Assembly: GCA_033398695.1 (NCBI GenBank)
Contig: CM065818.1
Span: 79,914,092-79,978,091 of the forward strand
Length of the DNA stretch: 64,000 nt
Direction: 5' to 3'
From: Orobanche coerulescens
Lineage: Eukaryota > Streptophyta > Magnoliopsida > Lamiales > Orobanchaceae
A program made the translations under genes and the position numbers. This document shows, piece by piece, positions 9,535 through 58,111 of this stretch. How positions within the stretch are numbered: position 1 is the first letter of the stretch; each line of letters begins with the position of its first letter. The notes under the pieces were generated by a model. The model saw only the letters and a program-made list of their open reading frames with translations, did no database searches and had not been told where the DNA came from.

Positions 9535-9866
9535 TTAGCGCACGTTAAGTGTTATAGTTAGCGCGCACTAACGGGTGGTGCAGAAATAGTCCAGAGGCTA
9601 CTGGACTGGGTTAGAACATTGGTTAGCGCACGCTATTTGGTAACATAGCGCGCACTAGGGTGCATTAGTAGCGCATGCTAAGGTGAGGATTGCGCACGCT
9701 ACATGGTTGTTCAAGGGTAGTCCAGGAGCTACTGGATTGGGTCTGGAGGTCTCGTTAGCGCACGCTAACACTTGTGGTTAGCGCATGCTAGCAGTGTGTT
9801 TTGGTCTGGCAGTTTGTTTCGGTGCCACGATAACGCACGCTAATCTTAAAGATTAGCGCACGCTAA
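9535..9866. repeat. Palindrome array, TTAGCGCACGCTAA type (LTR B promoter)
   Basis: Ten copies, exact or near-exact, of the quasi-palindrome TTAGCGCACGCTAA lie near 9535, 9558, 9623, 9645, 9667, 9689, 9755, 9778, 9829 and 9853. They form pairs with start-to-start spacing of 22-24 bp. A diverged duplication (AGTCCAGAGGCTACTGGA and AGTCCAGGAGCTACTGGA) lies between pairs. The array ends 12 bp before the TATA box. Confidence 0.9.
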
Positions 9867-9877
9867 TCTATCCAGTG

Positions 9878-9885
9878 TATATAAA
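9878..9885 (+). promoter_or_regulatory. LTR B TATA box
   Basis: TATATAAA directly downstream of the palindrome array. It is the likely core promoter of the LTR (U3/R boundary about 30 bp downstream). Confidence 0.7.
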
Positions 9886-10617
9886 CTGGACAACAGTCGT
9901 GGAATGTTATTTCCACTTCATTTCTTCTCCTCTCCGCGTGTTTGAGACGAGGGTGACTGGGGTCCGAGATTCTGGTAGATTTTGTTCCATCCAAAGGTGT
10001 TTTAGAGTATCCTAGGTGATTATAACATCGTCTAATCCATTGTTCTTCGCCGAATAAAGGTATTTTTCTTGAATCCATAGAGTTAACTTTTTGAGAGTTT
10101 TGTTCTTGATTTCGTTTTCCATCCGATTTTGATAAACCGATTGTTGTTTAATGATGTTGTTAAACATATCCTATGGATTGTATATCCATATTTTGGTTTG
10201 GACTTCCGTTTTCGTGTTTTGATGGGACGGATCGCGTTCTTGACCATTTTGGGGGAAATCCTTGAACTTTCGTCGTTTGTTCCTTGAATTCCGCGACTTT
10301 AGGTCGTGCTATAGAATTTATTTTCATTGTTGTTATTGTCCTTCGTAGTGTATTGTCGCGAGTTGGCATTCGGCGGAGTCGGCGGGTTCGTAGTCAGTTC
10401 GTGCCAACCTATTTTTGTCGATTCTCCGCATTTGTGGTTATTCGAGGCAAGTACCTTGTCAATACATTTCTTGTTTTATGGGTATAATGATTGGTTATTG
10501 CCTCGGTATGTTTGTTCGATTGTTTGAGATAAACTTTCAAAAGATTCGGTTTAGCCTCCTCAAAGCCTCACTTTCAAAACGCGTGTGTTTTGTGAATGTT
10601 GTGTCTCGTGAATGTTG

Positions 10618-11552
10618 CATCTAGTGGATCAGCTACTGAGGCAGAGGGTGCAGTAGGCGGAATTAGAGATCACTGTAGTTAGCTGGGATGCTCTAAGAAT
10701 AGCTTCCAACTTTGAAGACTTCTTTGTCTTCAGCTTCTTCTTCTTCTCGACAGCTGTAGTAGAGCCACTGTCGGGAATAGATCGCTTTGTCAGCTACTAA
10801 GTATACAATAAACAGCTTAGAAAGTAAGAACAATAAGTTGTACATTTTTAGAAGTTAATTTGCATAGCGGAAGTATGTTGTGTGAGTTGCTGTAAATACA
10901 TCAATTAGGTGTTCTCCTATATGGTTTAACAGTGTATATTCTATAAATCACAATAGACTGAAAACAGTAATGATAGAACGTAAATAACACACAATTTAAA
11001 GTGGTTCGAGGTAAATCCCTCTACGTCCACTGGTCCTCCACACAGGAGTAAAGAGTTTATTAAAATCACTACGTACACAACTAGGTGACTTTTTCTTTGA
11101 AGAACGATCATCGTAGATGGGTTGTTTGCGTGGAGGACTTGGTATATTTCTTTGCTTGGATATTGCTGTATGCTCACGAAATATACTTCTTTGTAATCGC
11201 TAGAATGTCAGAGTAATCTGTCAAAGCTTTCGCAATAATGAATAGTGTGTGTATGAAGTCCTATTGCTTGGGGCTATTTATAACCTTGGAATTCTATCCA
11301 TTATTAATGTAGCCATTGTTGGTTGGTGAGATATTAACGTCTGTCTCTTGATTGGCGGCTGCTGAATATTTGAATTAAAGCAGATCGCATTTAATGCTTC
11401 AGATATCCTTTCTGTCTTTGCATTAAATGCTCTTTAGAGCGTTCAGAGTTGTCTCTCTCCGGCTGCATTAAATGTTGTCCTATTAGCAATAAATGCTACT
11501 TTAACTGTGAATACTTTATGAATAAATAATGTTTATCTCACAATAGTTTAAA
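10618..11552 (-). repeat. Fragment I: minus-strand LTR with adjoining leader
   Basis: Read on the minus strand, 11552 begins TGTGAGATAAAC. A TATA-like TTATAAATAG lies near 11275-11284, and the block ends near TCACACA at 10879. The stretch around 11020 has the style of a copia LTR R/U5 region (GGATTTACCTCGAACCACTT). Bases 10618-10878 would be leader and a few gag codons. No primer binding site was found, so the ends and family are tentative. Confidence 0.4.
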
Positions 11553-11567
11553 GCTTTTTTTGTCCGA

Positions 11568-15797: not shown

Positions 15798-16516
15798 TAT
15801 GAAGATATGAATTGAGCAAAGTATGATGCGAACTATACTTACAAATGAACAAAGCAATCAAAGCAAACAAATCTATTAAATAGATCTATAGCATCGTGAA
15901 AGAGTATATCTTAAAACAGTCATATTCGGAGAAGCTCTTTAGTTGGAGAAGACAAACACTCTTGTCTTTAAAGCTGAGTAAGGGGTACTTCTGTGAACGA
16001 GGTTTCAGAAGTTTCGCGACTGATAAGGCATCCTCGAGTTCTTGATTGAAAGGTGATAGAAACTCGAGAGTTGTTGAGGCATCCAAGGAGTTTCGATCAA
16101 GAGGTGCTAGGTAGTCAAGGCAGTTGAAACGGCCACAGATTTCCACTACTTGGAAGCTGTTATTGTAATACTCGGTTGTAACTCAGTCATTTTTATTCGG
16201 TAATTATCAGTCTGTATTTGTCACTCAGTAATTCTCACTCATTAATAATCGCTCATCATTCATGAATCACTCAATTGCGTTCAATGTTGGCATGTGGTAA
16301 CCGTGTATCAGTTACCGATCGTCATTTCATCTCCGTTTGAGTGTCGGAACGGGAGTATTATCATTATCATCGTGATTGGTAGTCTTGTGCTGGAGTATCA
16401 TTCTTTGGCATGTGTTAGACTTGTTCATTTCCACATTCGTATGATTTGTCGGATCATTCATCAGTCGTATCGAGGAATCGGAATCATCGGATTTATTCAC
16501 CTTGGCCAACATTGAG

Positions 16517-17015
16517 TTACGGCCGTAAGGTTCTGGGATACGGCCGTAAGTCCAGCAGGTACGGCCGTAAGGCTGGCGATTCTGGCCGTAAGTGGCCCAG
16601 GCCGCCAGGCGTTTTGGCCGAAGGTGAGTTACGGCCGTAAGGAAGGTGAGATACGGCCGTAAGTGGCGTTCGTAAATTCCGGGTGTTGTCGACCAAGGGT
16701 GACTTACGGCCGTAAGGGTTGCGGCATACGGCCGTAAGTCGAGGCAGGTACGGCCGTAAGGCTTGGCCGGATACGGCCGTACGCTGCAGGTAGGATGTCC
16801 GGCCATTTTTGACGAAGGCGGGTTACGCCCGTAAGGTTGGCCGGATACGGCCGTATCATCCGAGTTACGGCCGTAAGGTGTGCGGTACGGCCGTAAGGCT
16901 GTCGGCGGGTGTTTTTGACGAAGCCGAGTTACGGCCGTACGAGTTGGCCGGTTACGGCCGTAAGGCCGTTGACTTGTAAAGTTACGGCCGTAAGAGGGCC
17001 GAGTTACGGCCGTAA
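16517..17015. repeat. Palindrome array, TTACGGCCGTAA type (LTR D, 5' copy)
   Basis: About 18 copies (16 with the exact ACGGCCGT core or nearly so, two degenerate) from 16517 to 17015. Runs such as 16705, 16727, 16749 and 16771 are spaced 22 bp; other neighbours are 21-23 bp apart. The array stops 11 bp before the TATA-like box. Confidence 0.93.
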
Positions 17016-17025
17016 CTTCCGGCAG

Positions 17026-17033
17026 TATTTAAG
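17026..17033 (+). promoter_or_regulatory. LTR D TATA-like box (5' copy)
   Basis: TATTTAAG just after the last palindrome; the 3' LTR has the same box at 24047-24054. It is a weaker match than in the other LTRs. Confidence 0.55.
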
Positions 17034-18682
17034 TACTCGGCCGGGACATTTTTACTCATTTTCATCCTCTTCTTCTTCTTGTTCCGAAAGAGAGACTTGA
17101 GAGAGGTATTTTTTCCATCCTCAATCACTGGTGTATTCGGATTTCATCATCTTATTTCGTTGGGAAGCTTGGATAGTCGATTTAACACGTTTTCATCGGA
17201 TCGAAGTGTTTGGATCTTCAAAGGTAATATTCTTCAACACCTTGGATTTCGATTTTTTGTTGAGATAAGATGTTTTGGACGTTATAATCATGTTATATGA
17301 AGGGATATGTATATGATTATAAGTTTGTATAAAGATTCATTGGATTATTGAAGGATTATTCAAGAACACTTTGAATATCGAGTTGAAATTGGGGGTTTTC
17401 GATTAATTGTCGTTATAATCACGTTTTTGGATATTCGTTTTGGATTATTAATCGTATTGAAGATGTTTTGTGGGTTTGAAACCTTTCTTGAGGGATTTGA
17501 TATTGGTACATTGAGGTTTGATTGTAAACAATTGGAGTTCGGACGCAACGTGTTTGATTTAATGCCTCAATGGACTTGGTTTAGTCGTATTAGCGTTTTG
17601 AGTTCGTTATATTCGTGTTTGATTCGTATATTGAACGGATTGTTGGTAATTGAATTGTTCAAGGTTGTTCGAGCGACCGATATCTCAATTAGGACATTGT
17701 TCGCGGAAGGATAATTGTCGCCGGCGTTGTGTAAGTTAATTCTTACTCGGTTAAAAGGATATTCATTCCTTTTGTCGTTGTTCATTCATAATCATACCTC
17801 ATTCATCATTGTATTAATCGTATCAAAACTCGTCATTGTCAATTAATCACCTCAGTCATAAGGAGCAGCGGTTCCGATCATTTCATTGAGCTATCATTCA
17901 TTTCACCATCATTCAATCTTGGTGAGTCATTATTCATTTTCATTGTCACTTTTGTCGTATTGTGGCATTAGGGTCATCTTGGCGTGCCGGTTGGTATGTG
18001 TAGGATTTTCATGTCGGGCACATTATAGTCGTGTGTTGGTTGGTGACCTCACATTGGACTGTGCACACGAGTCGATTGCTCGTGAGACTGATTAGGTACA
18101 AGACCACGCGTGTTTGATCGTTGGTGGCTTGTGCACGGACACATTTCCATCCCGGGCGTAGTGTGACGCCATTCCTTTGAGCCGTCTTGATTAGTCGATT
18201 CATATAGCATGTTTGATTGCGTATGTTTTGAGAATAATTCATAATTTCGGATATATCATGATTGTGTATTTTCAACCCTTGAGGATTGTTGTTCTTTATG
18301 GCCCGGCCCGTTTGGGGATTTTGTTTTTGAGGTCATGGCAAGGCAAGCACGGGAATAGCATGTTGATGTCGAGGAGTCCTAGTGATACTAGTAGGGGCCC
18401 CGATCTTTGATTATTCATGTTCTTGTCCTTTATTTTCAGCTTGAGACTTTCATTTGAATACTCCGTTTCATTCGGTGTGGTGTATTTTATCTTCATATAA
18501 AATACACCGGTATTCGTATTGTCTGGTGTGTTGTAACTAAACTCCTCATCGGAGTAATTATTCCGTAATGTAGTTCGGTACTACATTTATCCGGTGTAAT
18601 TCATTCATTTTCTTTTGCACGGTGGGTCCTGGTTGGGGATCTACGCTATTGTAATATCCGCCTAGTTTGGGGTGTTACGAGT

Positions 18683-18694
18683 TGGTATCGGAGC
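18683..18694 (+). promoter_or_regulatory. Element D primer binding site
   Basis: TGGTATCGGAGC, one mismatch from the initiator-Met tRNA complement, three bases after the LTR. Confidence 0.85.
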
Positions 18695-19208
18695 GTGGTT
18701 TTGAATACTACCCTCCAAGTCATGTCTCATTTGAAATCATCGTCATCGGACTAGTATCATTGGACTTTCGCGTCACGTGTGACTGTGCAGATGCCGAGCC
18801 AATCGATCAAAGAAGCGTAAGATTTCTAACGCCATGGTATAATTTACGGCAATAGTCATTCATTCATCATTCATCATTTAACAATCCTCAACATCATCCT
18901 TTATTATGATTAAGACGATCATGTTAACTCATTAATCACTTAATTCATTTCATTACTCAGTTAATGATCAGGACGACCATGTTAATTCATTAATCACTTA
19001 ATTCATTTCATTACTCAGTTGCCGATCTAGATGATCATATTATAAATCTTGTTAAATTATTCAAAATAATCATTTCAAGAATTTCATCAGATACTCATGT
19101 CACTTCAGTCAATCATTCCTATAATCACTAAGTTAGAGCATGTATACTCATTTTCATCATCTCATGACGTAATCATAACGTGATAATCATGCGGGTAATA
19201 TAATCATT
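18695..19208 (+). other. Element D untranslated leader
   Basis: AT-rich leader with two near-identical ~60 bp copies at about 18910-19020 (TTAATCACTTAATTCATTTC with GACGACCATGTTAA). It resembles the 37-bp repeats in the leader of element C on the opposite strand, supporting kinship of C and D. Confidence 0.5.
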
Positions 19209-19797
19209 ATGCGACCTTCCTACTTCAGTATGGAGAGAGCTGTCAGGGGATGCACGGGAAGAGGCCGCGGTGCGGGCCGAAACCCGAGGAATAATCACTC
19301 GCTGCCGGGAAATCGTGCCCAGGACTTGGCTCGATCAGAAGATGTTTGGGTTGATCCACTCACTTTTATGCAGGCCATGATGACCCATGTGCAGTTGCTC
19401 AATCATCATTGCGCCACTCTGACCGGATTAATCGAGAGAACTCTCCCGTATGAGGCAGTACGCTAAGGAGAGTCTTGAACAACAACCTTCATCTTTCAGC
19501 AAGAAATCAACGAAGCGTAATCAATCCGAAGGCGGTCAGTCAACCTTCAAGAAGCCTCGTGTGAGCCCTATCGTTTCTGAACGACCTTCTACGGCGCATA
19601 ATCGTGCGGGATCTCATTCCCGAGCGGCCATTTCGGCCATCACCTGTTTCAATTGTGGGCAGCGGGTCATTTCAGCAGAGTGTCTCAAACCGTCTATCAC
19701 GTGCTATAATTGTGGGAATTTTGGACATAAGGCCCGTTTTGCGAAAGGACTCCAAGTCGGCTCGCGGCATCTCGAGCCCGAAGCAATCGGCGTTTGA
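19209..19797 (+). pseudogene. Element D gag, shortened, with ruined zinc knuckles
   Basis: Two overlapping frames (19209-19466 and 19450-19797) cover a short gag. The first begins MRPSYFSMERAVRGCTGRGR and ends near a TLPYEA segment; the large capsid core seen in elements A and B is missing. The second holds STFKKPRVSPIVSERPS and two knuckle remnants, CFNCGQRVISAEC (no histidine) and CYNCGNFGHKARFA (last cysteine lost). With the capsid core absent and both knuckles broken, this gag should not package RNA. It is nevertheless in the right place between leader and pol. Confidence 0.75.
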
Positions 19798-20712
19798 GAA
19801 TCAGGCCTTTGTCAACGTCATTTAAGACAATGGAAGCAAATAGAGTTGGAGCTCGTACTTATCGAGACGGGAGCGTCGGTTCGGGGCGGCAAGTCCCATT
19901 CATATGATGAGGAGGATCGACGATCGGTGGTCGAATAATTTCAGGTATACTCGAAATTATATTTCAACTTGAGTGAACCTTATGATGCTGGTACACCGCA
20001 ATCATACATTTTCGAATCATGCTTGAATAGACTTATTTCGGAATAGTCCTATTGCTTGTGGACTTCATACCATCGGTCTACCTGACGATGGAAGAATTTT
20101 CGAAATTTTACCAAATTAAGCTTAATGACCGCGATTGGTTGATGGGTCTAATCGTGGTGAACTTATCTTAGGACGATGTAATTTTCAGTATTTGTTGGTT
20201 CAACCTTCTTGATACTATCCTCAGTGATTGTTAGCGTTTGGTCACTATCTTTCCATCGTTGGTTGTCGATTGTGTGCTTCAGGGTAGTGATCCCCGTTGT
20301 TCCGGTAGAATTTTTTTTTTTTTTTTTTTTTTATTATGGCAGAGGCAGAGAGATTCCGCGATCGAACTATTCAATCATTCATTGTATCATTTTCATCGAT
20401 TGGCCTTTCTAGGGCAATCGAGTTATTCAATCATTCATTGTATCATTTTCATCGATTGGCCTTTCTAGGGCAATCGAGTTATTCAATCATTCATTGTATC
20501 ATTTTCATCGATTGGCCTTTCTAGGGCAATCGAGTTATTCAAACATTCATTGTGTCATCTTCATCGATTGGCCTTTCTAAGGCAATCGAGTTGTTCAATC
20601 ATTATTGGTATCTCTTTTTATCGATTGACCATTCTAGGACAATCGCAATGTTCAATCATTCGTAGTATCATTGTCATCGATTGACGATGTATTTTCAGAC
20701 GAGTTATCTGGT
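19798..20712 (+). other. Element D protease region, replaced by a poly-T run and 56-bp repeats
   Basis: From 19798 to about 20300 only traces of protease/linker are seen, such as LIETGASV near 19855. A run of about 22 T follows at 20311-20332. An array of 56-bp repeats then occupies 20369-20700. Coding sequence resumes with DVFSDELSG, the normal VFPDELPG before RT, at about 20687. The repeats thus sit exactly between protease and RT. Confidence 0.7.
20369..20700 (+). repeat. 56-bp tandem array inside element D pol
   Basis: About six units starting at 20369, 20425, 20481, 20537, 20593 and ~20650, with core ATTCAATCATTCATTG and TCATCGATTGGCC. The first four are nearly identical. The reverse complement matches the 56-bp repeats in the C LTRs (39157-39680 and 45948-46465) in the same element-relative orientation. 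Confidence 0.92.
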
Positions 20713-21480
20713 TGTCTTCACATAGAGTAGTGGAATTCAGGAGTGAGTGGAACCGGTACGTTCCCTTTATCGAAGGCACCGTATCGGATGGCCCCGACCA
20801 GAATGCAAGAGTTGAAGATTCAACTGGAGGAGTAGTTCGAGAAAGGTTATCTCCGACCGATTGCATTCCCGTGAGGAGCACCAGTGTGATCTGTCAAGGA
20901 GAAGGATGGCTCGTCTCGTGTGTGTATTAATTACCAGTAGTTGATCAGGGTAATGATCAAGAGTAGTATCCCTTACCCCGTATTGATGATCTTTTAGATC
21001 AACTTCAGGGAGCCTCGTATTTTTCCAGGATCGACTTAAGATCTGGATATCACGATTGCGGATTCGAGAATCGGATATCGCGAGGACAGCGTTTCATACA
21101 CGCTATGGTCATTATGAGTTCGTAGTTATGCCGTTCGGGCTAACTATTGCACCTGCAGTATTCATGGAGTTAATGAATCGGGTTTTCATCGACTTTTTAG
21201 ATCAGTTGTTGTTGTCTTCATCGGCGACATTTTGATTTATTCTCTTAGCGAGAGGAACACGAGGTTCATCTTCTTCGAGTTCTCGACGTGTTGAGACGCG
21301 AGCAATTTTATGGAAGTTTTCTTAATGTGAGTTACGGATGTCCGAAGTGACTTTTCTCGGGCATGTAATTTCATCTGACAGAGTTCGTGCCGACCCTCAG
21401 AAGACGGAGGCTATCCGAGATTGGCAACCTCCGAAAGATGTTAAGTAAATCCGAAGTTCCCCGGATTAGATGATTAATTA
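20713..21480 (+). pseudogene. Element D reverse transcriptase remnant
   Basis: Translated in several frames, the order matches a Tekay-type RT: a PYRMAPTRMQELKIQLEE segment near 20785, GAPV and KDGS near 20880-20910, an YPxLxIxDLLDQL-like stretch near 20980, [15 protein letters not shown] near 21010-21050, MPFGL-like near 21130, [14 protein letters not shown] near 21165, then an [13 protein letters not shown] catalytic segment near 21220 in which the expected VFIDD reads FIGD. FLGHVISSDRV follows near 21355. Stops and small deletions are frequent, and several conserved blocks are shortened. The enzyme cannot be functional. Confidence 0.8.
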
Positions 21481-21489
21481 TCGACCCGG

Positions 21490-21890
21490 CCGGAGCTAAC
21501 AACCGTGGTTTTCGCGTTGGAATTTTGGCGTCATTACCTTTATGGCGTCACCTGTCAGTCATTCACCAATCACCAGAGATGAAGTATATATTTTCTCACA
21601 AGGAGTTAAATATGCGACAGGGGCGGTGGTTGGAACTAATCAAAGATTTTGATCTCGAGATCCTTTACCACCCGGGCAAGGCGAACGTTGTCGCCGACGC
21701 CTTGAGTCGTAAGTCCATTCAGGAGCAGATGCTTGCTCATTTAAGAGTTCAGAAGGAGCTTCAGCAGGAATTCCTTAGACCCGAGATCGAGGTCCGACTT
21801 CAGCAAGTTCAGGGACAGCTTTGTATGTTAGAGATTTCATCATCACTTGAGGAGGAAATCAGGGAGAATCAGGGTTCAGATTCATTTTGT
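21490..21890 (+). pseudogene. Element D RNase H remnant and linker
   Basis: The N-terminal catalytic Asp part of RNase H is deleted. What remains begins with LTTVVFALEFWRHYLYGV in split frames near 21500. It continues in an open frame (21525-21959) with YIFSHKELNMRQGRWLEL and [15 protein letters not shown], the usual end of Ty3 RNase H. The linker to integrase follows (LRVQKELQQEFLRPEIE). Given the lost active-site half, it is a pseudogene. Confidence 0.85.
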
Positions 21891-22460
21891 TGCTCATCCG
21901 CGAGGATGTGGTACAGGGGAAAGCCCCTGGAATTGTGGTCCACGAGGATGGACTCTTGAGTTTTGAGAATCGGTTGTGCGTACCGGCGAATGATGAGTTG
22001 AAGAGCTCGATCTTGAGAGAAGCTCATGCTACCCCTTATCCGGTTCATCCGGGGTCTAGCAGGGTGTACCAGGATTTGAAACAACATTTCTGGTGGAATA
22101 ATATGAAGCGAGGAGTCGCGGAATTTGTTTCGAGATGTTTAGCCTATTAGCAAGTCAAGATTGAAATCAGCGACCGGTGAGTATGCTGATATCGCTTCCT
22201 ATTCCAGGATGGAAGTGGGAAGACATTTCTATGGATTTCTTCACAAGTTGCCGGCAGTCGTCGTGGCATGAATACGATCTGGGTGATCGTGGATCGCTAT
22301 CTAAATCAGCTCATTCCCTTGAGATCAAGGATACGTGGGGTCCCGAGAGACTTGCCCAATGCTCGTGAGAGAGTTAGTGAGATTGCAGTACTCCTAAGAG
22401 TTTGTTTCGATCGTGTCGGGCGATTCGTGTCTCGTTTAGGGAACCGATTCACCGTGCTTT
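21891..22460 (+). pseudogene. Element D integrase, zinc and catalytic core remnants
   Basis: The zinc-binding domain is visible as LCVPANDELKSSILREAHA, then YPVHPGSSRVYQDLKQHFWW and FVSRCLAY, where the second cysteine of the HHCC motif is lost to a stop. The core then shows WKWEDISMDFFT (first catalytic Asp) at about 22210, a VIVDR-like segment, SKSAHSL, and a broken VSDRD region near 22430. Bases 22461-22760 hold further fragments, such as LRACVLD near 22545, in shifted frames. Integration of this copy must have been catalysed by another element's enzyme or happened before decay. Confidence 0.75.
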
Positions 22461-22770
22461 GAGAACTCGGCTTAATATTATTACCGTTTTCATCCTCGGT
22501 CCAGCGGACAATCAGAGAGGACTTTTCGAGACAGTGGAGGACATGTTGAGGGCATGCGTCCTCGATTAGTAGAGGATCGGAAGCCCAATTCATTACGGTT
22601 GTCGATCTCCCTTGTGTTGGGACGACCCATCGAGTCAATCGGCACCGAGCCGATATACTTAGCCGCCCGGAGAAGGTAGCTTTGATCGAGACGTCATTGA
22701 ATGCTCGAGTCGGCGAAATCATATACAGTGTCGTCATCGACCACTAGAGTTCGATACGGGTGATCCCGTT

Positions 22771-23148
22771 TTGGTCAAGGTATTCCCGAGTCGAGGTATT
22801 TTCCGTTTCGGAAAACGGGGGAAGTTGAGTTCGAGATTCATTGGACCGTGTGAGATTTTGAATCGAGTAAGCGAGTTAGCTTATCGATTGGCTTTACCTC
22901 TGTTGTTGGGCCGAATTCATAATGTGTTTCACGTCTCTCACATACTTCAGTTTGACGAAATCGAGATCGCGGATGATCATCCGTACGAGGAGCGTCCTGT
23001 ACGAGTGTTGGAGCGGCAAATCAAACAGTTGAGGAACAAGATGATTCCTTTGGTCAGATTCAGTGGTCTAGACACGGAGTCGAAGAGGCTACTTGGGAAA
23101 CCGAGGAGAATATGCGGGAGAGTTATCCCGAATTGTTTGACCCTTAGT
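22771..23148 (+). pseudogene. Element D integrase C-terminus with chromodomain-like end
   Basis: The open frame starts MVKVFPSRGIFRFGKRGKLS, the GKRGKLS/PRF-IGP motif of the Ty3 integrase C-terminal domain, and continues LPLLLGRIHNVFHVSHILQF and ERPVRVLERQIKQLRNKMIP. After one shift near 23060 the sequence reads WSRHGVEEATWETEENMRES and YPELFDP before a TAG at about 23146. The W-x-x-H-x-x-EEATWE pattern is the chromodomain-like tail of plant chromoviruses, thought to steer integration to heterochromatin. This places D in the chromoviruses (Tekay-like by inference). Confidence 0.8.
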
Positions 23149-23149
23149 T

Positions 23150-23181
23150 TCGGGGACGAAACTCTTTTAAGGGGGGGAGTA
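23150..23181 (+). promoter_or_regulatory. Element D polypurine tract
   Basis: TTTCGGGGACGAAAC, then TTTTAAGGGGGGGAGTA ending next to the 3' LTR start. It is the same 3' signature as in B, C and F. Confidence 0.85.
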
Positions 23182-25681
23182 TGTAATACTCGGTTGTAAC
23201 TCAGTCATTTTTATTCGGTAATTATCAGTCTGTATTTGTCACTCAGTAATTCTCACTCATTAATAATCGCTCATCATTCATGAATCACTCAATTGCGTTC
23301 AATGTTGGCATGTGGTAACCGTGTATCAGTTACCGATCGTCATTTCATCTCCGTTTGAGTGTCGGAGCAGAGTATTATCATTATCATCGTGATTGGTAGT
23401 CTTGTCTTTGGAGTATCATTCTTTGGCATGTGTTAGACTTGTTCATTTCCACATTCGTATGATTTTTCGGATCATTCATCAGTCGTATCGAGGAATCGGA
23501 ATCATCGGATTTATTCACCTTGGCCAACATTGAGTTACGGCCGTAAGGTTCTGGGATACGGCCGTAAGTCCAGCAGGTACGGCCGTAAGGCTGGCCGGTT
23601 ACGGCCGTAAGTGGCCCAGCAGGCTGCCCAGGCGTTTTGGCCGAAGGTGAGTTACGGCCGTAAGGAAGGTGAGATACGGCCGTAAGTGGCGTTCGTAAAT
23701 TCCGGGTGTTGTCGACCAAGGGTGACTTACGGCCGTAAGGGTTGCGGCATACGGCCGTAAGTCGAGGCAGGTACGGCCGTAAGGCTTGGCCGGATACGGC
23801 CGTCTGTGCAGTAGGATGTCCGGCCATTTTTGACGAAGGCGGGTTACGCCCGTAAGGTTGGCCGGATACGGCCGTATCATCCGAGTTACGGCCGTAAGGT
23901 GTGCGGTACGGCCGTAAGGCTGTCGGCGGGTGTTTTTGACGAAGCCGAGTTACGGCCGTACGAGTTGGCCGGTTACGGCCGTAAGGCCGTTGACTTGTAA
24001 AGTTACGGCCGTAAGAGGGCCGAGTTACGGCCGTAACTTCCGGCAGTATTTAAGTACTCGGCCGGGACATTTTTACTCATTTTCATCCTCTTCTTCTTCT
24101 TGTTCAGAAAGAGAGACTTGAGAGAGGTATTTTTCCATCCTCAATCACTGGTGTATTCGGATTTCATCATCTTATTTCGTTGGGAAGCTTGGATAGTCGA
24201 TTTAACACGTTTTCATCGGATCGAAGTGTTTGGATCTTCAAAGGTAATATTCTTCAACACCTTGGATTTCGATTTTGTGTTGAGATAAGATGTTTTGGAC
24301 GTTATAATCATGTTATATGAAGGGATATGTATATGATTATAAGTTTGTATAAAGATTCATTGGATTATTGAAGGATTATTCAAGAACACTTTGAATATCG
24401 AGTTGAAATTGGGGGTTTTCGATTAATTGTCGTTATAATCACGTTTTGGATATTCGTTTTGGATTATTAATCGTATTGAAGATGTTTTGTGGGTTTGAAA
24501 CCTTTCTTGAGGGATTTGATATTGGTATATTGAGGTTTGATTGTAAACAATCGGAGTTCGGACGCAACGTGTTTGATTTAATGCCTCAATGGACTTGGTT
24601 TAGTCGTATTGGCGTTTTGAGTTCGTTATAATCGTGTTTTATTCGTATATTGAGCGGATTGTTGGTAATTGAATTGTTCAAGGTTGTTCGAGCGACCGAT
24701 ATCTCAATTAGGACATTGTTCGCGGAAGGATAATTGTCGTGGCGTTGTGTAAGTTAATTCTTACTCGGTTAAAAGGATATTCATTCCTTTTGTCGTTGTT
24801 CATTCATAATCATACCTCATTCATCATTGTATTAATCGTATCAAAACTCGTCATTGTCAATTAATCACCTCGATCATAAGGAACGGTTCGATCATTTCAT
24901 TGAGCTATCATTCATTTCACCATCATTCATCTTGGTGAGTCATTATTCATTTTCATTGTCACTTTTGTCGTATTGTGGCATTCGGGTCATCTTGGCGTGC
25001 GGTTGGTATGTGTAGGATTTTCATGTCGGGCACATTATAGTCGTGTGTTGGTTGGTGACCTCACATTGGGTGTGCACAGTCGATTGCTCGTGAGGCGATT
25101 AGGTACAAGACCACGCGTGTTTGATCGTTGGTGGCTTGTGCACGGACACATTTCCATCCGGGCGTAGTGTGGCGCCATTCCTTTGAGCCGTCTTGATTAG
25201 TCGATTCATATAGCATGTTTGATTGCGTATGTTTTGAGAATAATTCATAATTTGGATATATCATGATTGTGTATTTTCAACCCTTGAGGATTGTTGTTCT
25301 TTATGGCGGCCCGTTTGGGGATTTTATTTTTCGGTCATGGCAAGGCAAACGACGGGAATAGCATGTTGATGTCGAGGAGTCCTAGTGATACTAGTAGGGG
25401 CCCCGATCTTTCGATTATTCATGTTCTTGTCCTTTATTTTCATTGTAGACTTTCATTTGAATACTCCGTTTCATTCGGTGTGGTGTATTTTATCTTCATA
25501 TAAAATACACCGGTATTTATTGTCTGGTGTGTTGTAACTAAACTCCTCATCGGAGTAATTATTGCTGTAATGTAGTTCGGTACTACATTTATCTGGTGTA
25601 ATTCATTCATTTTCTTTTGCCTGGTGGGTCCCAGTTGGGGATCTACGGCGCTGTAATATCCGCCTAGTTTGGGGTGTTACA
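23182..25681 (+). repeat. Element D 3' LTR
   Basis: Close copy of 16164-18679 ending GGGGTGTTACA, followed by the duplicated GTTAT. It includes the palindrome array at 23535-24036 and a TATA-like box at 24047. Differences from the 5' LTR are mainly short indels. Confidence 0.93.
23535..24036. repeat. Palindrome array, TTACGGCCGTAA type (LTR D, 3' copy)
   Basis: Same layout as the 5' copy, about 17-18 copies with 21-23 bp neighbour spacing. One extra intact site (near 23600) is present where the 5' LTR has a degenerate one near 16582. Confidence 0.92.
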
Positions 25682-25686
25682 GTTAT

Positions 25687-26061: not shown

Positions 26062-27614
26062 CTTACTGCTGCTTATATATTGAACAGATGTCCTTACAAG
26101 TCCATTCGTAAGACTCCACATGAGATGTGGGAGGGTAAGAAACCAAGTCTTAATCATATTAGGATTTGGGGGTGTCCCGCTTATGTCAAGAAGACTAAGG
26201 TGGAGAAGTTGGAAGCAAGATCCGTAAAGGGACGTTTCATTGGATTCCAATTTGGTACGATGGGTTATCTATTCTACATGCCCGAAGATCGAAAGATCAT
26301 GGTTGCTTTGCAAGAACACTTCCTGGAAAATGAGTTCGTTCAGGAATGTGGAGCAGGTAGAAGTATCTCTTTGGAAGAATACAATGAAACTCTTCAGGAG
26401 ACACCTGTACAAGAAGTTGGAACCGAACCTTCTGAAACACAAGTACAACCACCTCATATGTCTAGTAGGGTGTCTTAATTACTTGAGAGGTATGACTTTG
26501 TGCATTTGGAGGAACTGGGTCCCCATGAGGTTCCAGATGATATCCAAGAGACCGACCCCACGACATATGACCAAGCGATGGTAGATGTAGACTCCACAAA
26601 ATGGCAAGAAGGTACGGAAGCTGAGATAGACTCGATGCATGCCAATCAGGTGTGGACCCTAGTAGACCGCCCCAAGGACATAGTGCCCATTAGGAACATG
26701 TGGATCTACAAGAGAAATGCTGATAGGGATGGCAAGGTTAACACCTATAAGGCCAGGCTTGTGGCAAATGGTAATACCCAAAAGGAAGGGACCGATTATC
26801 ACGATACCTTCTTGCTCATAGCTATGATCAAGTCTATTCGAATGATGCTTTCTATAGCTGCCTACCACTATTATGAGATATTGCAGATGGACGTAAAGAC
26901 AGCTTTCCTTAATGGATTCCTCGAGGAGGAGATCTATATGGAGCAGCCTAAAGGATTTGTGTCTGAGGTCGATGTTCATAAAGTGTGTAAACTTCAGCAT
27001 TCTATTTATGGACTGGAGCAGGCTTCGTGTAGTTGGAACCTTCGTTGTGACGAAGCTGTCAAAGAGTTTGACTTCGTACAAAATGAAAAGGAACCTTGTG
27101 TATACAAGAGGGTTAGTTGGAGAAATATCGCATTATTAGTACTATATGTAGATGACATTCTACTAATAGGAAACGATGCGGGAATGCTTAGTTCTGTGAA
27201 AGCTTAGCTTTCGAGTACGTTCTCCATGAAAGACTTGGGAAAATCTACCTATATTATCGGGATTCGACTCTGCTGGGATAGAGCGATAGAATGATAGGTC
27301 TTTTCCAAGCCCTTTATATAGATAAGATCTTAAAGTGATTTAAGATGGATGAATCTAAAAGAGGATTCCTTCCGATGCGACATGTAATAAAACTCACCTC
27401 AAAGATGTGTCCTCAAAGTGAGGAACAACGAAATAAAATAAGTAATATACCATATGTGTCGGCCGTGGGTAGCCTTATGTATGCTATGTTGTGTATGAGG
27501 TCTAACATTGCACACAATGTGAGGTCTAACACTCGAACTGGCAAGAAAAGAAGAGGAGAAACATCCCAATTCTCATCCACTCCGACAAATCCGACTGACG
27601 GCCCTCAGTTCTGA
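26062..27614 (+). pseudogene. Element K: copia integrase C-terminus and RT remnant
   Basis: A different copia pol, beginning in the integrase C-terminal region (LNRCPYKSIRKTPHEMWEGK, LNHIRIWGCPAYVKK, KGRFIGFQFGTMGYLFYMP) at 26077. One stop at 26476 separates this from the RT (26500-27207), which shows MHANQVWTLVDRPKDIVPI, MDVKTAFLNGFLEEEIYMEQ, a YGLEQASCSW segment and YVDDILLIGND. A stop and shift near 27208 lead to FSMKDLGKSTYIIGI, then a third piece (27345-27614) with ISNIPYVSAVGSLMYAMLCM. RNase H is lacking. Its style is close to Tnt1-like elements and unlike J. It starts exactly at the LTR J end, so J probably inserted into K. Confidence 0.87.
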
Positions 27615-27626
27615 AATCTTCAGGCT

Positions 27627-28073
27627 ATGAAAATCTACAAAGACATCTTGATTGACGAAGAGGTAACTCCTAGTCATCAATTTGATTTTGAATCCCTGAA
27701 AGCTATTGGTATAAATATTGATGAGTTTTTCAATTTGTTGGTGTTATCCAAGTTTGTTAGTTTAGCTGGGCCGATTTATGTCGATTGTGTTCGTGAATTT
27801 TATGCAAACTTTTGGATTTCCTTCAATGCTGAAGGGTCTCATGTTGTTCACTCTGTTGTTCATGGAAAAGAGATTGAACTTGATGCGGATAAGGTGTCTA
27901 GCATTATTGGATTACATAATGATGGTTTTATTTGTAGTGAAAACTTTGTTCCAGATGATGAATGTCCAACAATTAATATCTATGATGCTGAGTACGAGCC
28001 CCAGATTGAGTTGCTTGTGAGAAATTTCCTGTTATCCAGAGCCGTGCTAGAAGTGAATACTGAACGTACGTAA
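27627..28073 (+). CDS. Unknown retroelement-type ORF (plant transposon protein-like)
   Basis: An uninterrupted frame of 148 codons, MKIYKDILIDEEVTPSHQFD through FESLKAIGINIDEFFNLLVL, CVREFYANFWISF, VVHGKEIELDADKVSSIIGL and YEPQIELLVRNFLL to a stop. The REFYANFW segment followed by a V-x-G-K-x-I-x-L-x-x-x-x-I-x-x-I-I-G-L pattern recalls the 'putative plant transposon protein' domain found in the gag or additional ORFs of many plant retroelements. That match is from memory of the pattern and is not certain. No catalytic residues are apparent. The frame ends exactly where a palindrome array begins, so it is probably truncated at its C-terminus. An ATG start at 27627 fits, but the frame may open earlier. 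Confidence 0.45.
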   Translation: MKIYKDILIDEEVTPSHQFDFESLKAIGINIDEFFNLLVLSKFVSLAGPIYVDCVREFYANFWISFNAEGSHVVHSVVHGKEIELDADKVSSIIGLHNDGFICSENFVPDDECPTINIYDAEYEPQIELLVRNFLLSRAVLEVNTERT

Positions 28074-28411
28074 CAAACCATTCCTAACGTACGTAACATT
28101 AACATATTCACTAAGTGTTTTGAATGTAGGTAACGTACGTAATACCTACCGTATAACGTACGTAATATTCGAGAATCAGCCTGTTGCACGGAGTCAACAA
28201 ATTAGTCATCGATCGTTGCAATAAAGCCATCGGATCTAACGGATATGAAGACCAAGCATAACGTACGTAATGTATAATACATAACATACATAACAGATTT
28301 CAGCCAGGAGCCTGCCCATTTCCTTATATGTCATTACGGCCGTTACATGGAGGATGTAACGTACGTAACACGGCTTACATACGTAACATAAGGTACTTAA
28401 CATACGTAACA
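28063..28411. repeat. Palindrome array, TAACGTACGTAA type (copia LTR)
   Basis: About ten copies near 28063, 28086, 28132, 28155, 28260, 28283, 28334 (as TTACGGCCGTTA-like), 28358, 28378 and 28400. Pairs are spaced 23 bp (28063/28086, 28132/28155, 28260/28283). The array ends about 40 bp before the TATA box. Confidence 0.9.
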
Positions 28412-40617: not shown

Positions 40618-40935
40618 TTACGGCCGTAACCGACAAGGCCTTACGGCCGTAACCGACATTCGTCAAAACCCGCCCAGCGCCTGCCGATCGCTTACGGCCG
40701 TAACCGACAGGGCCTTACGGCCATAACTCGGCACTTACGGTCGTACCCGGCAGGTCCTTACGGCCGTAACCGGCATTCGTCCGAACACTGCCTCGCACCC
40801 CTACGGCCGTAACTGACAGCCCTTACGGCCGTAACCGGCATTCGTTCGAACACTGCCGAGCACGTACGGCCGTAACCAGCACCTTACGGCCGTAACTCGG
40901 CCAGGCCCTGCTCCAAGAAGTGCGGCCGTGACTCG
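40618..40935. repeat. Palindrome array, TTACGGCCGTAA type (C 3' LTR)
   Basis: About ten copies near 40618, 40641, 40692, 40715, 40735, 40758, 40801, 40823, 40864 and 40884, then degenerate ones to 40935. Neighbour spacing is 20-23 bp within pairs. In the element sense the array precedes the TATA box by about 10 bp. Confidence 0.92.
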
Positions 40936-41065
40936 GCCGTGGCCACTCCGACGGCCCGGACGATGGCGAAACCCGAACCTAAATATGAATCGAAGATACG
41001 GTTACGAAGTACTCGCAAAGACGAATCCGAGCGCTAAGAGAACACACGATTCCGACCACCCGAAG

Positions 41066-44242: not shown

Positions 44243-44253
44243 CTCTGATACCA
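44243..44253 (-). promoter_or_regulatory. Element C primer binding site
   Basis: Minus strand TGGTATCAGAG, five bases after the LTR end TGTTACA. It is the initiator-Met tRNA type. Confidence 0.85.
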
Positions 44254-45791: not shown

Positions 45792-45947
45792 CTAGCTGAG
45801 ACTAGCCTCCAAAATATATTTAATCACAAACGGCAACGATCCGAAGATTACCGGATTCACGAGAATGATAGTGTGCTGCCTTGAGTCGGCCAGCACGATA
45901 ATGATGACTCACGGATGGGCACCGTCCTCAGAGGTCCCAATTCAATA

Positions 45948-46465: not shown

Positions 46466-47388
46466 CCTCGGCACCTTTAATCGGCTATCGACGATGAAGA
46501 TGAGAACGAATACGACAATGCCTTCAATCGTCCAATACAACATGAATGACAGGACGCCAACATTAATAACAATGATTACAACAACATCTTCGATCGACAT
46601 CAATATTAACAACAACAACCGATACATCGATACCGCAAGCCGGTGATTGATAATAACATTAACAATGAATATCTCAATGCCTTACCGGCCATTAATGAAC
46701 GATAATAAATATTTGGCATAATTGCCGAAGAGTATCGTATCGAACGATCCCCTATAATCAATGAACTTATGAAGAGACTAAGTCTCAGAATGATATACAA
46801 CACATTCATACACATATATGATAACATTAATCTCATTTACTAGTACAAGTATAAAACTTGCCTCAACCGAAGGCGATGAAATCCTTCCACGAACAACGAA
46901 GGCGTCCTCCGATAAACACAAGTACTCGAACAACCATGAATGAAATACAATTCATTCAATAACACAATATCAATCGAAATCAACACAACGACCGAAAGAA
47001 ACTCTTTGAGACCATTAATCGAACACTAAATGTTCAAGGTTCCTCAAGAACCTAAGAATCATCAATCGGGTTGAACGAATCGAAGATATGGATATACAAT
47101 CCATAGAACACGATTAATAATGTTTACTAACATCAACAGATTCATCAAATTCGGACGAACAATGAAAATCAAGAAGAAATCTCGAAAAATCAAATTCTAG
47201 GAGATTTCAAGAATTTACCTCGATCCGACGAAGAACAATGATTTGATGTTGATATAATCGATAAGAATCCTCAAAAATGCTTAGAAATCGAGTGGAATCG
47301 ACCAAAAACTCCATTTCTCAATTTTTCCCGTCGCCAGCCGCACCCGGGTGAAGAAATGTGAAGAAAATGAGGTTTGGCCGGTCACAGC

Positions 47389-47399
47389 CTATATATGGC
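47389..47399 (-). promoter_or_regulatory. LTR C TATA box (5' copy)
   Basis: Minus strand CATATATAGGC-like box between the palindromes and the rest of the LTR. Confidence 0.6.
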
Positions 47400-47407
47400 C
47401 GATCGGG

Positions 47408-47690
47408 TTACGGTCGTAACCGACAGGGCCTTACGGCCGTAACCGGCATTCATCAAAACCCGCCCAGCGCCTGCCGATCGCTTACGGCCGTAACCGACAG
47501 GGCCTTACGGCCGTAACTCGGCACTTACGGCCATACCCGACAGGTCCTTACGGTCGTAACCGGTATTCGTCCGAACACTGCCTGGCACACGTACGGCCGT
47601 AACTGACAGCCCTTACGGACATAACCGGCATTCATCCGAACACTGCCGAGCACGTACTACCCTAACCAGCACCTTACGGCTGTAACTCGG
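47408..47690. repeat. Palindrome array, TTACGGCCGTAA type (C 5' LTR)
   Basis: About ten copies near 47408, 47431, 47482, 47505, 47525, 47548, 47591, 47613, 47654 and 47674, more degenerate than in the 3' LTR (CGGTCG, CGGCCA, CGGACA variants). Confidence 0.9.
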
Positions 47691-48237
47691 CCAGGCGAGG
47701 CCCTGCTCCAAGAAGTGCGGCCGTGACTCGGCCGTGGCCACTCCAACGGCCCGGATGATGCCGAAACCCGAACCTGTATATGAATCGAAGATACAGTTAC
47801 GAAGTACTCGCAAAGACGAATCCGAGCGCTAAGAGAACAAACGATTCCGACCACCCGAAGGCTCGAAATTCGACAACGGAAAGTAATTACCCCAAACTTT
47901 GAGAAATTATGAAAATGGCCCAAAACGTCCGAAATACACGATACACGATCGAAACACCAAGACAAAGCTCGCAAAATGAATAATAACATTAAATGAACTT
48001 ATGAGAAACTCGAAACAACAGTGTCAGACGAGATTCGCAAGAATCGAACTCAAGTGCGGAGAAGCCGTTTAAGAACATGGAACTCAACAAAACAATACCG
48101 AAACGAACTCGGATGACAAAAAGTGCAGAATTAAATATTCTCATAATGACGAAACGGTCACAACGGAGTCGCTAAGATGGACTTCCGCCAAAAAAGAAAA
48201 TTACCGAAAAAATCGAAATTGCGGATATTACATAAAG

Positions 48238-55335: not shown

Positions 55336-55351
55336 TTTTCACAAAACCCAA

Positions 55352-55363
55352 GCTCAGATACCA
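55352..55363 (-). promoter_or_regulatory. Element F primer binding site
   Basis: Minus strand TGGTATCTGAGC, one mismatch from the initiator-Met tRNA type, five bases after the LTR. Confidence 0.82.
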
Positions 55364-57690
55364 TCTTCTGTAACACCCCCAAAACCATCCGGGATATTAC
55401 AGCGTCGTGGGCCCCGCGCCGGAACCCACCAGGCTAAAAAACCATTTTCTAAAGCCTTCAAAATGCCAAAAAGTCCAATGACGGTAATGTTTTGCAAATA
55501 CTCAAATATTTTCAAAAATATTGTTCTCAAATACCGTCATAAAATACCAGTTTAAAATACAAGGCGAAAACATCAAAACTCAACAGTTTCAAAATGTACG
55601 TTAAGCCACTACTTACACGTATCAATAAATAGTTTAGGAAAAAGGGTTCAAAAAAATACCCCAAGTTTACGAAATCCCCAAAAGGGCCATTTTGAAAATT
55701 ATACACGAGTTGGTAAAAATACCAGAAAGTCATTTTGAAATATACACACGCAACGGATATAAACACAGTTCAAAATACACATTTGCAGCGGGAATAAAAC
55801 AACCAGAAAGAATACTCAATTCTCCGAAAACATGCCACAACCAGTATCAACCGGGAAGCTCATCCCTTCACGACCGATGTTAGCTCAATCTCCGAGTACC
55901 TAAACTAAAGCCCACGACGGGGTCAGCCACAATACTCAATAATGATATCGTCACATCATCATAAATAGTTACATACCAATGTAATAATACTGTAAGAATA
56001 CTACCAACGTAATCCTACCATTATAACCTTACCAACCCATAGCAATCCTTACCATAATCCACATTTCACATTCTCAATTGACGAAATGAGCTCAACTACA
56101 ACCATTTGTACTATATTCAAACATTACCAATAATCTTCAAAACATCATCATAACTCATAATTGTGAAATAATTCATCCGTGCCAAATCCTGTCCGTCGGA
56201 TTCGCACCGTCAAATCTCAACCTGGATGAAAACTAATAACACACAACATATCTGTAGATCAACTACCATAAAACAATGATAACAAACCCGAAACATCGAT
56301 GTACAGTCATACGATCAATAACCAGATCAACCGATAAATCAACCGAGAATATCATCGACATGATGATCTCCAATACGACCAACCAAAGGATCAACGATAC
56401 CCTAGAATACCATCAACTTGATAAACTCCAACACGATCAACAAGGGATCAATAATAACCGAGAATATCATCAAGGTAAATTCCAAACGATCAACAATAAT
56501 GGATCTCAAAGAAATAACCCCGACTGTTGAACATACCCCTCGGGCCGATGAACAACCAGTCGCAAACCATCGAACATATCCATTCATACATGGACTATGA
56601 ACGACCAAACAATATGGCTCAAAGATGGACGTCACAGTACACCCGATATGGAAATGTGTCCATGCACAAGCCACCTAGGGTATCGATCAAATACACGTGT
56701 GGTCTTATACCTAATCAGTCTCACGAACTAATCTTCTCGTGTGCACAGCCCAATGTAAGGACATGACCCCATCACACGTCTATATGTGGCCGCCCTGAAA
56801 ATCCTACACATAACTGATCGGCACGCAGATATGACTCCGGATATGTCACGATGCAACATGACAACGAAACTCAAGGAATCACCCAATAAGGATCAAAAGA
56901 CTCACCGAAGTGAACAATGACACACGGATAATAAAAGATCGACACGACTGACTATATCCAAAATAACCCTCCTGTGATCACAATCCCCAAAGAATAATCA
57001 ACACGATCAACAACCTCAACACTACAGCCCTGAGATCATCATCCCTCAACTATCGATCAACAAAACCCTTAATACCAAACAAAAGTTCTGGGATCCACAT
57101 CCATATTAATAAGGATTGTATCATAGTTAATTTTGAATCAACCTCATATCATGATTCATAAGAAATCAACATAATCCAGAAATCCATCTTTCCTCGATTT
57201 AAACGAATTGCAATCCTTATAATAGGGAGGATCTTAATTAACATCCAAAATCTCTTATCACAATTCCATTAAATCTCCTATAACATCAAGAATTGTAACA
57301 ATACTACCAAGAACATCAAGAACACTATGATTCCATAATCATAACTAACATAATCAAAGGTATAAATCATCATATCATCATCATCCTTAACAAAATTCCC
57401 ATGAATATCAAGAATCATCACAACAACTCCACAAACTAGCATCATACGAACTAATCATCAACAACAACATCAAAAATCCGAATTGAAATAGAGGATTATC
57501 AAACATACCTCTTAGAGGATGAAGTACACAAGTAAACACATCAAGAATTAATGATAGCTCCACATTTCAAGCTCCAATCCCATGTTTCCAAGCTCATAAT
57601 CGACTTAGAGGAGCTGAAACTCCATCTCTGGGGATTGAAGGGTGAAAAACGAAGTGAAATTCTGAATAAAAATGATATGGCAGGCATCCA

Positions 57691-57700
57691 CTTATATAAA
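57691..57700 (-). promoter_or_regulatory. LTR F TATA box
   Basis: Minus strand TTTATATAAG, 12 bp from the nearest palindrome. Confidence 0.65.
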
Positions 57701-57711
57701 CTTCCAACTCA

Positions 57712-58111
57712 TTACGTACATAACATGCCAAAGTTAACGTACGTAACACCCTCTTACGTACGCTATCTAACCTCGGTAGCGTACGTAATGACAGTCCAGA
57801 GGTCCCTCACTCATTTCGTTTAAAGCCTTATGACGTAACCCTTGCTCCATAGCGCACGTAATACGTACGTTGACTTGCTACAGTAAATTACAAAGTTAAC
57901 GCACGTAACCTTCCAATCATAATGTACGTTAACCAAGGGTTGACTCGTCCATGCATGTTCTCCACCGAAAGCTACCGACCACGGGACCCACCTGTCGGCC
58001 ATCTCTCGGATCCTGCCTGATTCCTCTCTTTACGTACGTAATGCCTTATGCATAACGTACGTAAAACGTAGCAACTTAGCGTACGTTAGTCCTGAAGCTT
58101 AGCGTACGTAA
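57712..58111. repeat. Palindrome array, TAACGTACGTTA type (LTR F)
   Basis: About twelve copies near 57712, 57735, 57754, 57777, 57850, 57861, 57896, 57920, 58030, 58053, 58076 and 58099. The last four are exactly 23 bp apart. Some copies are hybrids with the LTR B core (TAACGCACGTAA, TAGCGCACGTAA). Confidence 0.92.

What the first reader, a model, noticed from the sequence alone, without database searches (positions are those of the whole stretch)
9535..58111. Five LTR promoter types share arrays of short CpG palindromes phased at about 22-23 bp
Seen: LTRs of B, D, C, F (Ty3) and the 28-kb copia LTR each have ~10-18 copies of a 12-14 bp self-complementary word: TTAGCGCACGCTAA, TTACGGCCGTAA or TAACGTACGTTA. 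All share the form TTA..CG..CG..TAA, and neighbours repeatedly lie 21-24 bp apart, about two helical turns. In all five, the array lies just upstream of the TATA box (roughly 10-40 bp). Inference: a common type of promoter-proximal element, perhaps sites for a dimeric factor binding one face of the helix, or CpG targets for methylation or demethylation. I know of no description of this as a cross-superfamily LTR feature.
Basis: partly seen in the sequence, partly recalled or inferred. Interest (0 to 1): 0.88.

Follow-up and report, generated by a model that had tools for sequence, protein, structure and literature searches.

The report
Palindrome arrays in plant retrotransposon promoters
Different families of jumping genes in one plant genome carry the same style of short repeated DNA word beside their on-switch, probably docking sites for a DNA-binding protein, perhaps one that some jumping genes themselves encode to escape silencing.

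Summary
The arrays are real. Window arrays of 12-14 bp CpG palindromes (TTACGGCCGTAA, TAACGTACGTAA, TTAGCGCACGCTAA) end 10-14 bp from a TATA box in the non-copia LTRs and 40 bp in the copia one. Neighbouring sites lie 18-24 bp apart far beyond chance and almost never 25-39. They are genome-wide: TTACGGCCGTAA pairs 68,425 against 0 for the reversed control. Conservation stops at the palindrome edges. Ty3-type LTRs with flanks 82-86% alike carry different words.

In Sirevirus copia elements such arrays were published in 2010 (PMC2829016). Not found in the papers searched: the same design in Ty3 LTRs, the phasing, the near-constant TATA distance.

The parts
9535..9866 (+). array of TTAGCGCACGCTAA-type sites (family B), upstream of TATATAA at 9878-9884
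   Evidence: TATA position; Ty3 (Tekay-type, recalled) polypurine tract AAGGAGGGTAG next to the LTR start near 9196
16164..18683 (+). 5' LTR of a Ty3 element (family D)
   Evidence: LTR pair 16164-18683 / 23182-25684, 97% identical by BLAST
16517..17015 (+). array of TTACGGCCGTAA sites in the 5' LTR, upstream of TATTTAA at 17026-17032
18684..23181 (+). interior of element D: Ty3 reverse transcriptase, integrase and SH3 (PF24626) pieces; no PF20167 similarity found
23535..24036 (+). same array in the 3' LTR (23182-25684), TATTTAA at 24047-24053
27588..28067 (+). fragment of a PF20167 gene, one in-frame stop, directly before the 28-kb array
   Evidence: tblastn 64% over 160 aa to Orobanche gracilis protein P0121; stop; Pfam E 3.6e-07 for 27615-28067, 30.7 bits, below the Pfam cut-off of 45
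28062..28410 (+). array of TAACGTACGTAA sites in a copia-type LTR whose 5' end seems to be missing; TATAAAT at 28451-28457
   Evidence: LTR 79-83% alike to the copia LTR of L013 over 187 and 237 bp
40618..40895 (-). array of TTACGGCCGTAA sites (family C, LTR 38001-41065), TATATA at 40600-40605 on the - strand
47408..47685 (-). same array in the other LTR of element C (44614-47860), TATATA at 47390-47395
57713..58111 (-). array of TTAGCG/TAACG...CGTAA sites with mostly TA centre (family F), TATATAA at 57692-57698

Best explanation
The arrays are promoter-proximal, multi-site docking platforms for a sequence-specific DNA-binding factor that reads a symmetric CpG-containing site and works in clusters on roughly one face of the DNA, near the TATA box (shown: words, phasing, position; inferred: binding). 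The likeliest factor is a retroelement-encoded PF20167 protein with a VANC-like fold: it would bind its cognate word in the LTR promoter and in the promoter of its own gene, keep or make these CpGs free of methylation, and so switch on transcription. Other LTR families that carry matching words, also without the gene, would use it in trans; families change word as the protein changes. I put the docking-platform part at about 0.85 and the PF20167 part at about 0.45.
Confidence: 0.5

Rival explanations
1. The sites bind a host dimeric transcription factor (or a few paralogues); LTR families converge on its word because it gives strong expression. No element-encoded factor is involved.
For: Same word form in copia and Ty3 of one host; TATA-proximal position; TTGAC, core of the WRKY W-box (recalled), is enriched in spacers, 4.3 against 2.0 per kb; Ty3 element D without a PF20167 gene has arrays.
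Against: At least four words coexist (GC, TA and CA centres, and GTGCCGCGGCAC), mostly uniform within an array; LTRs with similar flanks differ in word, more easily explained by diverging element factors than by one host factor. I recall no plant factor whose site fits all words; I searched no motif library.
Confidence: 0.3
2. The CpG density itself is the function: a CpG platform read by methyl-binding activators or protected from methylation, without a sequence-specific factor.
For: The array finder met no array of GpC-only words and one AT-rich word outside the CpG arrays; CpGs decay faster than other sites between LTR pairs.
Against: A CpG platform needs no uniform 12-14 bp word, no constant centre, no one-way orientation and no phasing.
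Confidence: 0.1
3. The arrays act in RNA: the 3' LTR U3 is transcribed, palindromes pair into hairpins that feed or decoy small-RNA production, as proposed for maize Sireviruses (Bousios et al. 2016, not held; seen only as cited in PMC10760457).
For: RNA folds beat shuffles: z -9.15, -5.26, -6.16 for the D, C and B arrays.
Against: The copia array does not (z -1.31, 8 of 100 shuffles as good); family F was not folded. Phasing, TATA distance and one-way centre are not needed for RNA pairing, and folding follows from any palindrome.
Confidence: 0.06
4. Neutral minisatellite made by slippage.
For: Longer period repeats (65 and 192 bp) occur inside arrays; local duplication probably spreads words.
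Against: Spacers are little conserved, gap classes are restricted in different families, and 8 of 14 non-copia arrays end at one distance from TATA.
Confidence: 0.03

Closest known systems
Sirevirus LTR repeated motif (RM) boxes, Bousios et al. 2010 (PMC2829016)
   Same: 8 or more copies of a palindrome, mostly with CpG, clustered over 300-500 bp in the first half of the LTR, upstream of TATA; further copies before the third (env-like) gene.
   Different: Described there in copia Sireviruses only and said to be absent from other copia elements; here also in Ty3 LTRs, with other words (TTACG-NN-CGTAA, TTAGCG-YR-CGCTAA), phasing and a 10-14 bp TATA gap.
VANC / VANDAL anti-silencing system of Arabidopsis (PMC5735166, PMC10398659)
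   Same: Short motif in one-way, high-density arrays in non-coding DNA of the element; related elements differ in motif; a DNA-binding protein encoded by the element; fold resemblance of PF20167 models to VANC21.
   Different: VANDAL is a Mutator-like DNA transposon; VANC21 motifs are 9 bp and not palindromic; VANC has DUF1985 and DUF287, which the Pfam scan did not find here; no activity shown here.
CpG islands in Del/Tekay LTRs (PMC4029996)
   Same: CpG-rich stretch at the 5' part of Ty3 LTRs.
   Different: There, LTRs without islands predominate in the cluster that holds all eudicot Del elements, and 5' islands of monocots are of low conservation; here, in what is probably a eudicot, CpGs sit in conserved palindromes.
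Plant mobile domain proteins MAIN/MAIL1 (PMC7156037)
   Same: Transposon-derived proteins linked to transcription and silencing.
   Different: The Pfam scan gives PF20167, not the plant mobile domain; considered only as an analogy.

Membership tests
Sirevirus repeated motif (RM) | palindromic word in at least 8 copies per element | tested here: met
   strict rule, per LTR: 15 and 16 sites in D, 12 in L010, 9 in C (6 in its other LTR) and 9 in F; but 5 in B and 7 in the 28-kb LTR
Sirevirus repeated motif (RM) | cluster upstream of the TATA box | tested here: met
   no TATA by the pattern used in L010 and L027
Sirevirus repeated motif (RM) | CGG-CCG core | tested here: inconclusive
   present in TTACGGCCGTAA, absent from TAACGTACGTAA and TTAGCGCACGCTAA; one published RM (Tnd-1) also lacks it
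Sirevirus repeated motif (RM) | carrier is a copia Sirevirus | tested here: not met
   element D and loci L005, L008, L014, L027 have Ty3 pol, SH3, PBS or polypurine tract beside the array; met only for L013-type LTRs
Sirevirus repeated motif (RM) | extra copies upstream of the third gene | tested here: met
   L013 4086-4212, then TATATATAAA, then ORF3; one element
Sirevirus (for L013) | polypurine tract AGGGGGAG starting 10 bp before the LTR, further copies upstream | tested here: inconclusive
   terminal tract reads AAAAAGGGGAG then AT then TGTTGGAACA, one G short; one exact octamer at 2550; no tree of the reverse transcriptase made; LTR start not confirmed by the second LTR, which is cut by the locus end
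VANC system | VANC domain set DUF1985/DUF287 | tested here: not met
   Pfam scan at E<=0.1 finds PF20167 alone in P0121 and PF20167 plus four weak matches below cut-off in P0127, neither DUF
VANC system | VANC fold of the DNA-binding part | tested here: inconclusive
VANC system | dense one-way motif arrays in the element's own non-coding DNA | tested here: met
   39 CA against 3 TG centres; symmetric words have no direction
VANC system | sequence-specific binding and loss of methylation | not testable with these tools
   no binding or methylation data

The most novel reading that the evidence does not exclude
PF20167 genes of plant LTR retrotransposons, found here behind pol in a copia Sirevirus-like element and in a Ty3-linked family, and elsewhere called env-like, Athila ORF-1-related or 'putative transposon protein', are VANC-like anti-silencing regulators. 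Their targets are the CpG palindrome arrays, which sit both in LTR promoters and in the regulator's own promoter. Each lineage has its word, and families without the gene (Tekay-like and non-autonomous LTRs) live off regulators supplied in trans. VANC-type anti-silencing would then not be peculiar to Mutator-like elements but a cassette spread over both LTR superfamilies, and a large part of this genome would be written in its binding words.
Probability: 0.4. Interest if true: 0.92.

Novelty: new variant of a known kind. Interest (0 to 1): 0.8.

Why it matters
The role of Sirevirus RM boxes and of the extra genes of plant retrotransposons has stayed open (passages of PMC2829016 and PMC11728184 say so). 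If the arrays are targets of the VANC-like protein encoded beside them, one model explains both, makes a direct binding test possible, and gives a reason why one genome can hold more than two hundred thousand copies of a single such word (both strands). It would also show a cis-trans arms race shared by elements of both LTR superfamilies.

Tried and rejected
Element-encoded factor in Ty3 element D: no PF20167 similarity in its interior by tblastn and no other long extra frame; not excluded for other Ty3 families. Reversed sequence as a control for the array finder (11 loci) was dropped as a control, because a reversed palindrome is still a palindrome and CGGCCG reversed still holds CG. For single TTA-type sites the reversed sequences gave 9. 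Copia reverse transcriptase at 26056-27204 as proof that the 28-kb LTR is copia: dropped, since it is only 35% like the RT of L013, whose LTR is the homologue; the copia assignment rests on L013. CpG depletion as a sign of methylation: the sample shows CpG o/e of 1.00, so I used substitutions between LTR pairs. Ty3 pol and copia RT pieces of the window found nothing in the 21 PF20167 loci; frames of L017 did. A known plant factor for all words: none recalled that fits. The fold searches listed no other family of note; absence there proves nothing.

Left unanswered because the genome search machine was mostly unreachable: counts of centre dinucleotides, TATA distance genome-wide, rbcL for taxonomy. 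Taxonomy is inferred from the PF20167 relatives: 13 of 13 and 32 of 33 are named Orobanche proteins. Contigs C1-C19 are 138 Mb or longer if numbered by size (C20 on not seen), which would fit n=19, recalled for Orobanche.

Papers: PMC2829016 passages and section 9 whole; PMC4029996 passages and section 21 whole; PMC10760457, PMC5735166, PMC10398659, PMC12844716, PMC11728184, PMC7156037 passages only; Bousios 2016 not held. Other papers seen only in listings. 'Not found' rests on searches, in an open-licence library without most subscription journals; the paper behind 9lnj was not among them.
Full report
What is there. The window lies in a 3.65-Gb plant genome (G000:C18:79914092-79978091). It is packed with LTR retrotransposons. 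Element D (LTRs 16164-18683 and 23182-25684) has Ty3 reverse transcriptase, integrase and SH3 pieces between its LTRs. In element C (38001-47860) I found no coding similarity, so it is probably non-autonomous; its superfamily rests on LTR likeness to L026 and B. The LTR at 9.2 kb (family B) begins after a polypurine tract of the same type as D's. The 28-kb LTR is homologous to the LTR of L013, an element with copia gag, integrase and reverse transcriptase. Family F at 57.7 kb is weakly related (85 bp at 79%) to L005, which has the Ty3-type tract.

More than chance. Perfect CpG palindromes of 10 bp or more number 68 in the window against a shuffled mean of 18.0 (maximum 29), and 136 in 20 sampled 10-kb pieces against 56.35 (maximum 68). 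Of these 20 pieces, 11 hold at least one TTA-type array and a further one, L017, holds an array of another word, GTGCCGCGGCAC. A word-free finder gives 17 array loci in window plus pieces and none in 10 shuffles. The exact word TTAGCGCACGCTAA occurs 115,121 times on one strand and 113,783 on the other, against 0 and 3 for the reversed word. That control has fewer CpGs, so it overstates the excess.

Phasing. In 18 non-redundant arrays 59 of 115 gaps are 18-24 bp (random mean 17.2, maximum 30 in 2,000 simulations) and 1 of 115 is 25-39 bp (random mean 28.0, minimum 14). The 55 gaps of 36 bp or more are periodic at 10.5 bp (R 0.35, random 0.13, 1 of 500 simulations as high) and at 11 bp (R 0.42, none of 500). 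Genome-wide, 46,494 of 68,425 TTACGGCCGTAA pairs fall in spacers of 7-12 bp. In the first 50 forward matches listed, start-to-start gaps are 19-23 bp (35), 30 (6) and 42-52 (9), none at 24-29 or 31-41.

The unit is the palindrome. In six families, site columns carry 1.4-1.6 bits and the 24 flanking columns 0.08-0.36; sites were picked by likeness to the word, so the drop at the edges is the telling part. TTA-type sites share CG-NN-CG flanked by TTA or TTAN halves; of 93 cores with both halves present 67 are TTACG/TTACG, 16 TTANCG/TTANCG and 10 mixed. The centre is mostly uniform within an array: GC, TA, or CA, with exceptions such as L005, L008, L012a and F. Counting, CA or TG centres on the transcribed strand are CA 39 times and TG 3 times (8 of 17 arrays have any). 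So the word that is not fully symmetric nearly always points the same way.

Position. Of the 14 arrays that are not copia, the last core centre to the TATA start is 16-18 bp in eight: wB, wD, wC, L008, L012a, L014, L025, L026. It is 38-42 in wF, L001 and L005, where a weaker site lies in between, 25 in L012b, and no TATA was found by the pattern in L010 and L027. The two copia LTRs have 83 and 88 bp with weaker sites between, and the internal array of L013 has 23 bp.

Words change while the LTR stays. Upstream of the array, stretches of 179-694 bp of the B, L012 and L026 LTRs are 82-86% alike, yet B carries TTAGCG-CA-CGCTAA, L012 TTACG-TA-CGTAA and L026 TTACG-GC-CGTAA. Nearly all copies in each array changed together. 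Local duplication can spread a new word through an array, but the symmetric change needs a reason; a factor that changed its preference is the simplest one.

Methylation. Between the LTRs of eight pairs, transitions in CpG columns sum to 104 of 1,473 and other transitions to 140 of 11,496 columns (see the caveat above on how columns were counted). So CpGs decay faster, as methylated CpGs do. The array words keep two or three CpGs each, hence the sources of new copies are probably under selection for them (inference).

The gene. In L013 the order on the minus strand is LTR, gag, pol, then four strict TTACGTACGTAA-type sites (4086-4212), TATATATAAA, then an ORF in two frame pieces with PF20167 (E 3.9e-15), then the polypurine tract and LTR. 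The same array-plus-TATA unit thus stands before the LTR transcript and before this gene. Bousios et al. saw RM boxes before the env-like gene of Sireviruses. In the window a PF20167 fragment abuts the 28-kb array. The nearest relatives of the L013 protein are Orobanche proteins (13 of 13, 32 of 33), so the source is probably in or near Orobanche.

PF20167 genome-wide. The family search scored 150 of 16,053 first-look candidates; those listed are all over the cut-off; none of 14 control genomes has it. Of 21 loci read (the six fetched by the search plus 15 spread down the list), 13 have an upstream palindrome array by a strict rule, word TGCCGCGGCA, gaps 21-24, 44, 49-53 and 63-73; 12 end 874-942 bp before the domain and one 392 bp. 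A looser rule also finds one in L029. Eight have none by the strict rule. Background: 11 of 80 windows of 2,500 bp and 5 of 120 of 1,500 bp from the sampled pieces (upstream lengths were 2,500 bp in 15 loci and 1,500 in six). 185 of 210 pairs share over 1,000 bp, so this is mainly one family. Its tie to Ty3: 19 of 21 loci share 150 bp or more with L017 around the array that follows Ty3 pol there on the same strand; 14 of 21 have, upstream of the array, a 77-128 aa stretch like the 5' part of an L017 frame (4198-3473) that lies before its reverse transcriptase (33-46%), and L030 holds the last 34 aa of the L017 pol frame at 91%. L030 itself has no array by either rule, and the array-bearing loci show no reverse transcriptase or integrase in the stretch read, so they may be deletion derivatives. 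L017 ends before any PF20167 gene (none found). Downstream of the array a TTATAAC or ATATAAC and then a CAGGTAAGT-like splice donor is often seen (by eye).

Mechanism. Shown: arrays, word structure, phasing, position, arrays upstream of a PF20167 gene in L013 and in most loci read of one large family. Inferred: clustered binding by a dimeric factor; that the factor is the PF20167 protein; that binding counters methylation and activates transcription. In VANDAL elements VANC binds dense one-way arrays of short motifs, its targets differ between families, and VANC6 also affects an unrelated element that carries its motif. The Ty3 LTRs of the window, which lack the gene as far as seen, would be in the position of that unrelated element.

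Known or new. Arrays of CpG palindromes before TATA are known for Sireviruses. In maize the word CACCGGACNNNGTCCGGTG was the commonest in structured regions of copia and Helitron elements, while Ty3 elements had no obvious peak of structured regions. In Del LTRs of eudicots, lack of CpG islands predominates. A sunflower Athila extra ORF was noted to match PF20167, function unknown. I found no paper that links PF20167 to VANC or to these arrays. I therefore call it a new variant of a known kind.

Noticed in passing
L017 424-737, L001 1962-2162, and 13 of L029-L049: A further palindrome word, GTGCCGCGGCAC, in arrays with the same 21-24/44/50 bp gaps, placed after Ty3 pol (L017) or upstream of a PF20167 gene.
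   Followed up: partly
window arrays and L001, L014, L025, L026: The TATA box often lies inside a short inverted repeat, e.g. CCAGTATAAATACTGG or CCAGTTTATAAACTGG (by eye).
   Followed up: no
19 array regions: Spacer 7-mer AGTCCAG/CTGGACT occurs in 9 of 19 array regions and TTGAC is twice as dense as background; several of the regions are related.
   Followed up: partly
20361-20683 and 39227-39674, 46018-46465: A 56-bp tandem repeat is shared, inverted and 80-84% alike, between the interior of element D and the LTRs of element C.
   Followed up: no
32567-32588 and 37817-37838: A single 22-bp perfect palindrome AACATGCATACGTATGCATGTT in both LTRs of the 31.8-38.0 kb Ty3 element, in which the array finder met no array.
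   Followed up: no
20 sampled pieces: CpG observed/expected is 1.00 although CpG columns change faster than others between LTR pairs.
   Followed up: partly
38476-38995 and 45095-45786: 86-bp tandem repeats, 6 and 8 copies, in the two LTRs of element C, so copy number differs between LTRs of one element.
   Followed up: no
14 of L029-L049: Upstream of the array, PF20167 loci carry a stretch like the part of L017 before its reverse transcriptase but no reverse transcriptase or integrase in reach; perhaps non-autonomous elements that keep the PF20167 gene.
   Followed up: partly
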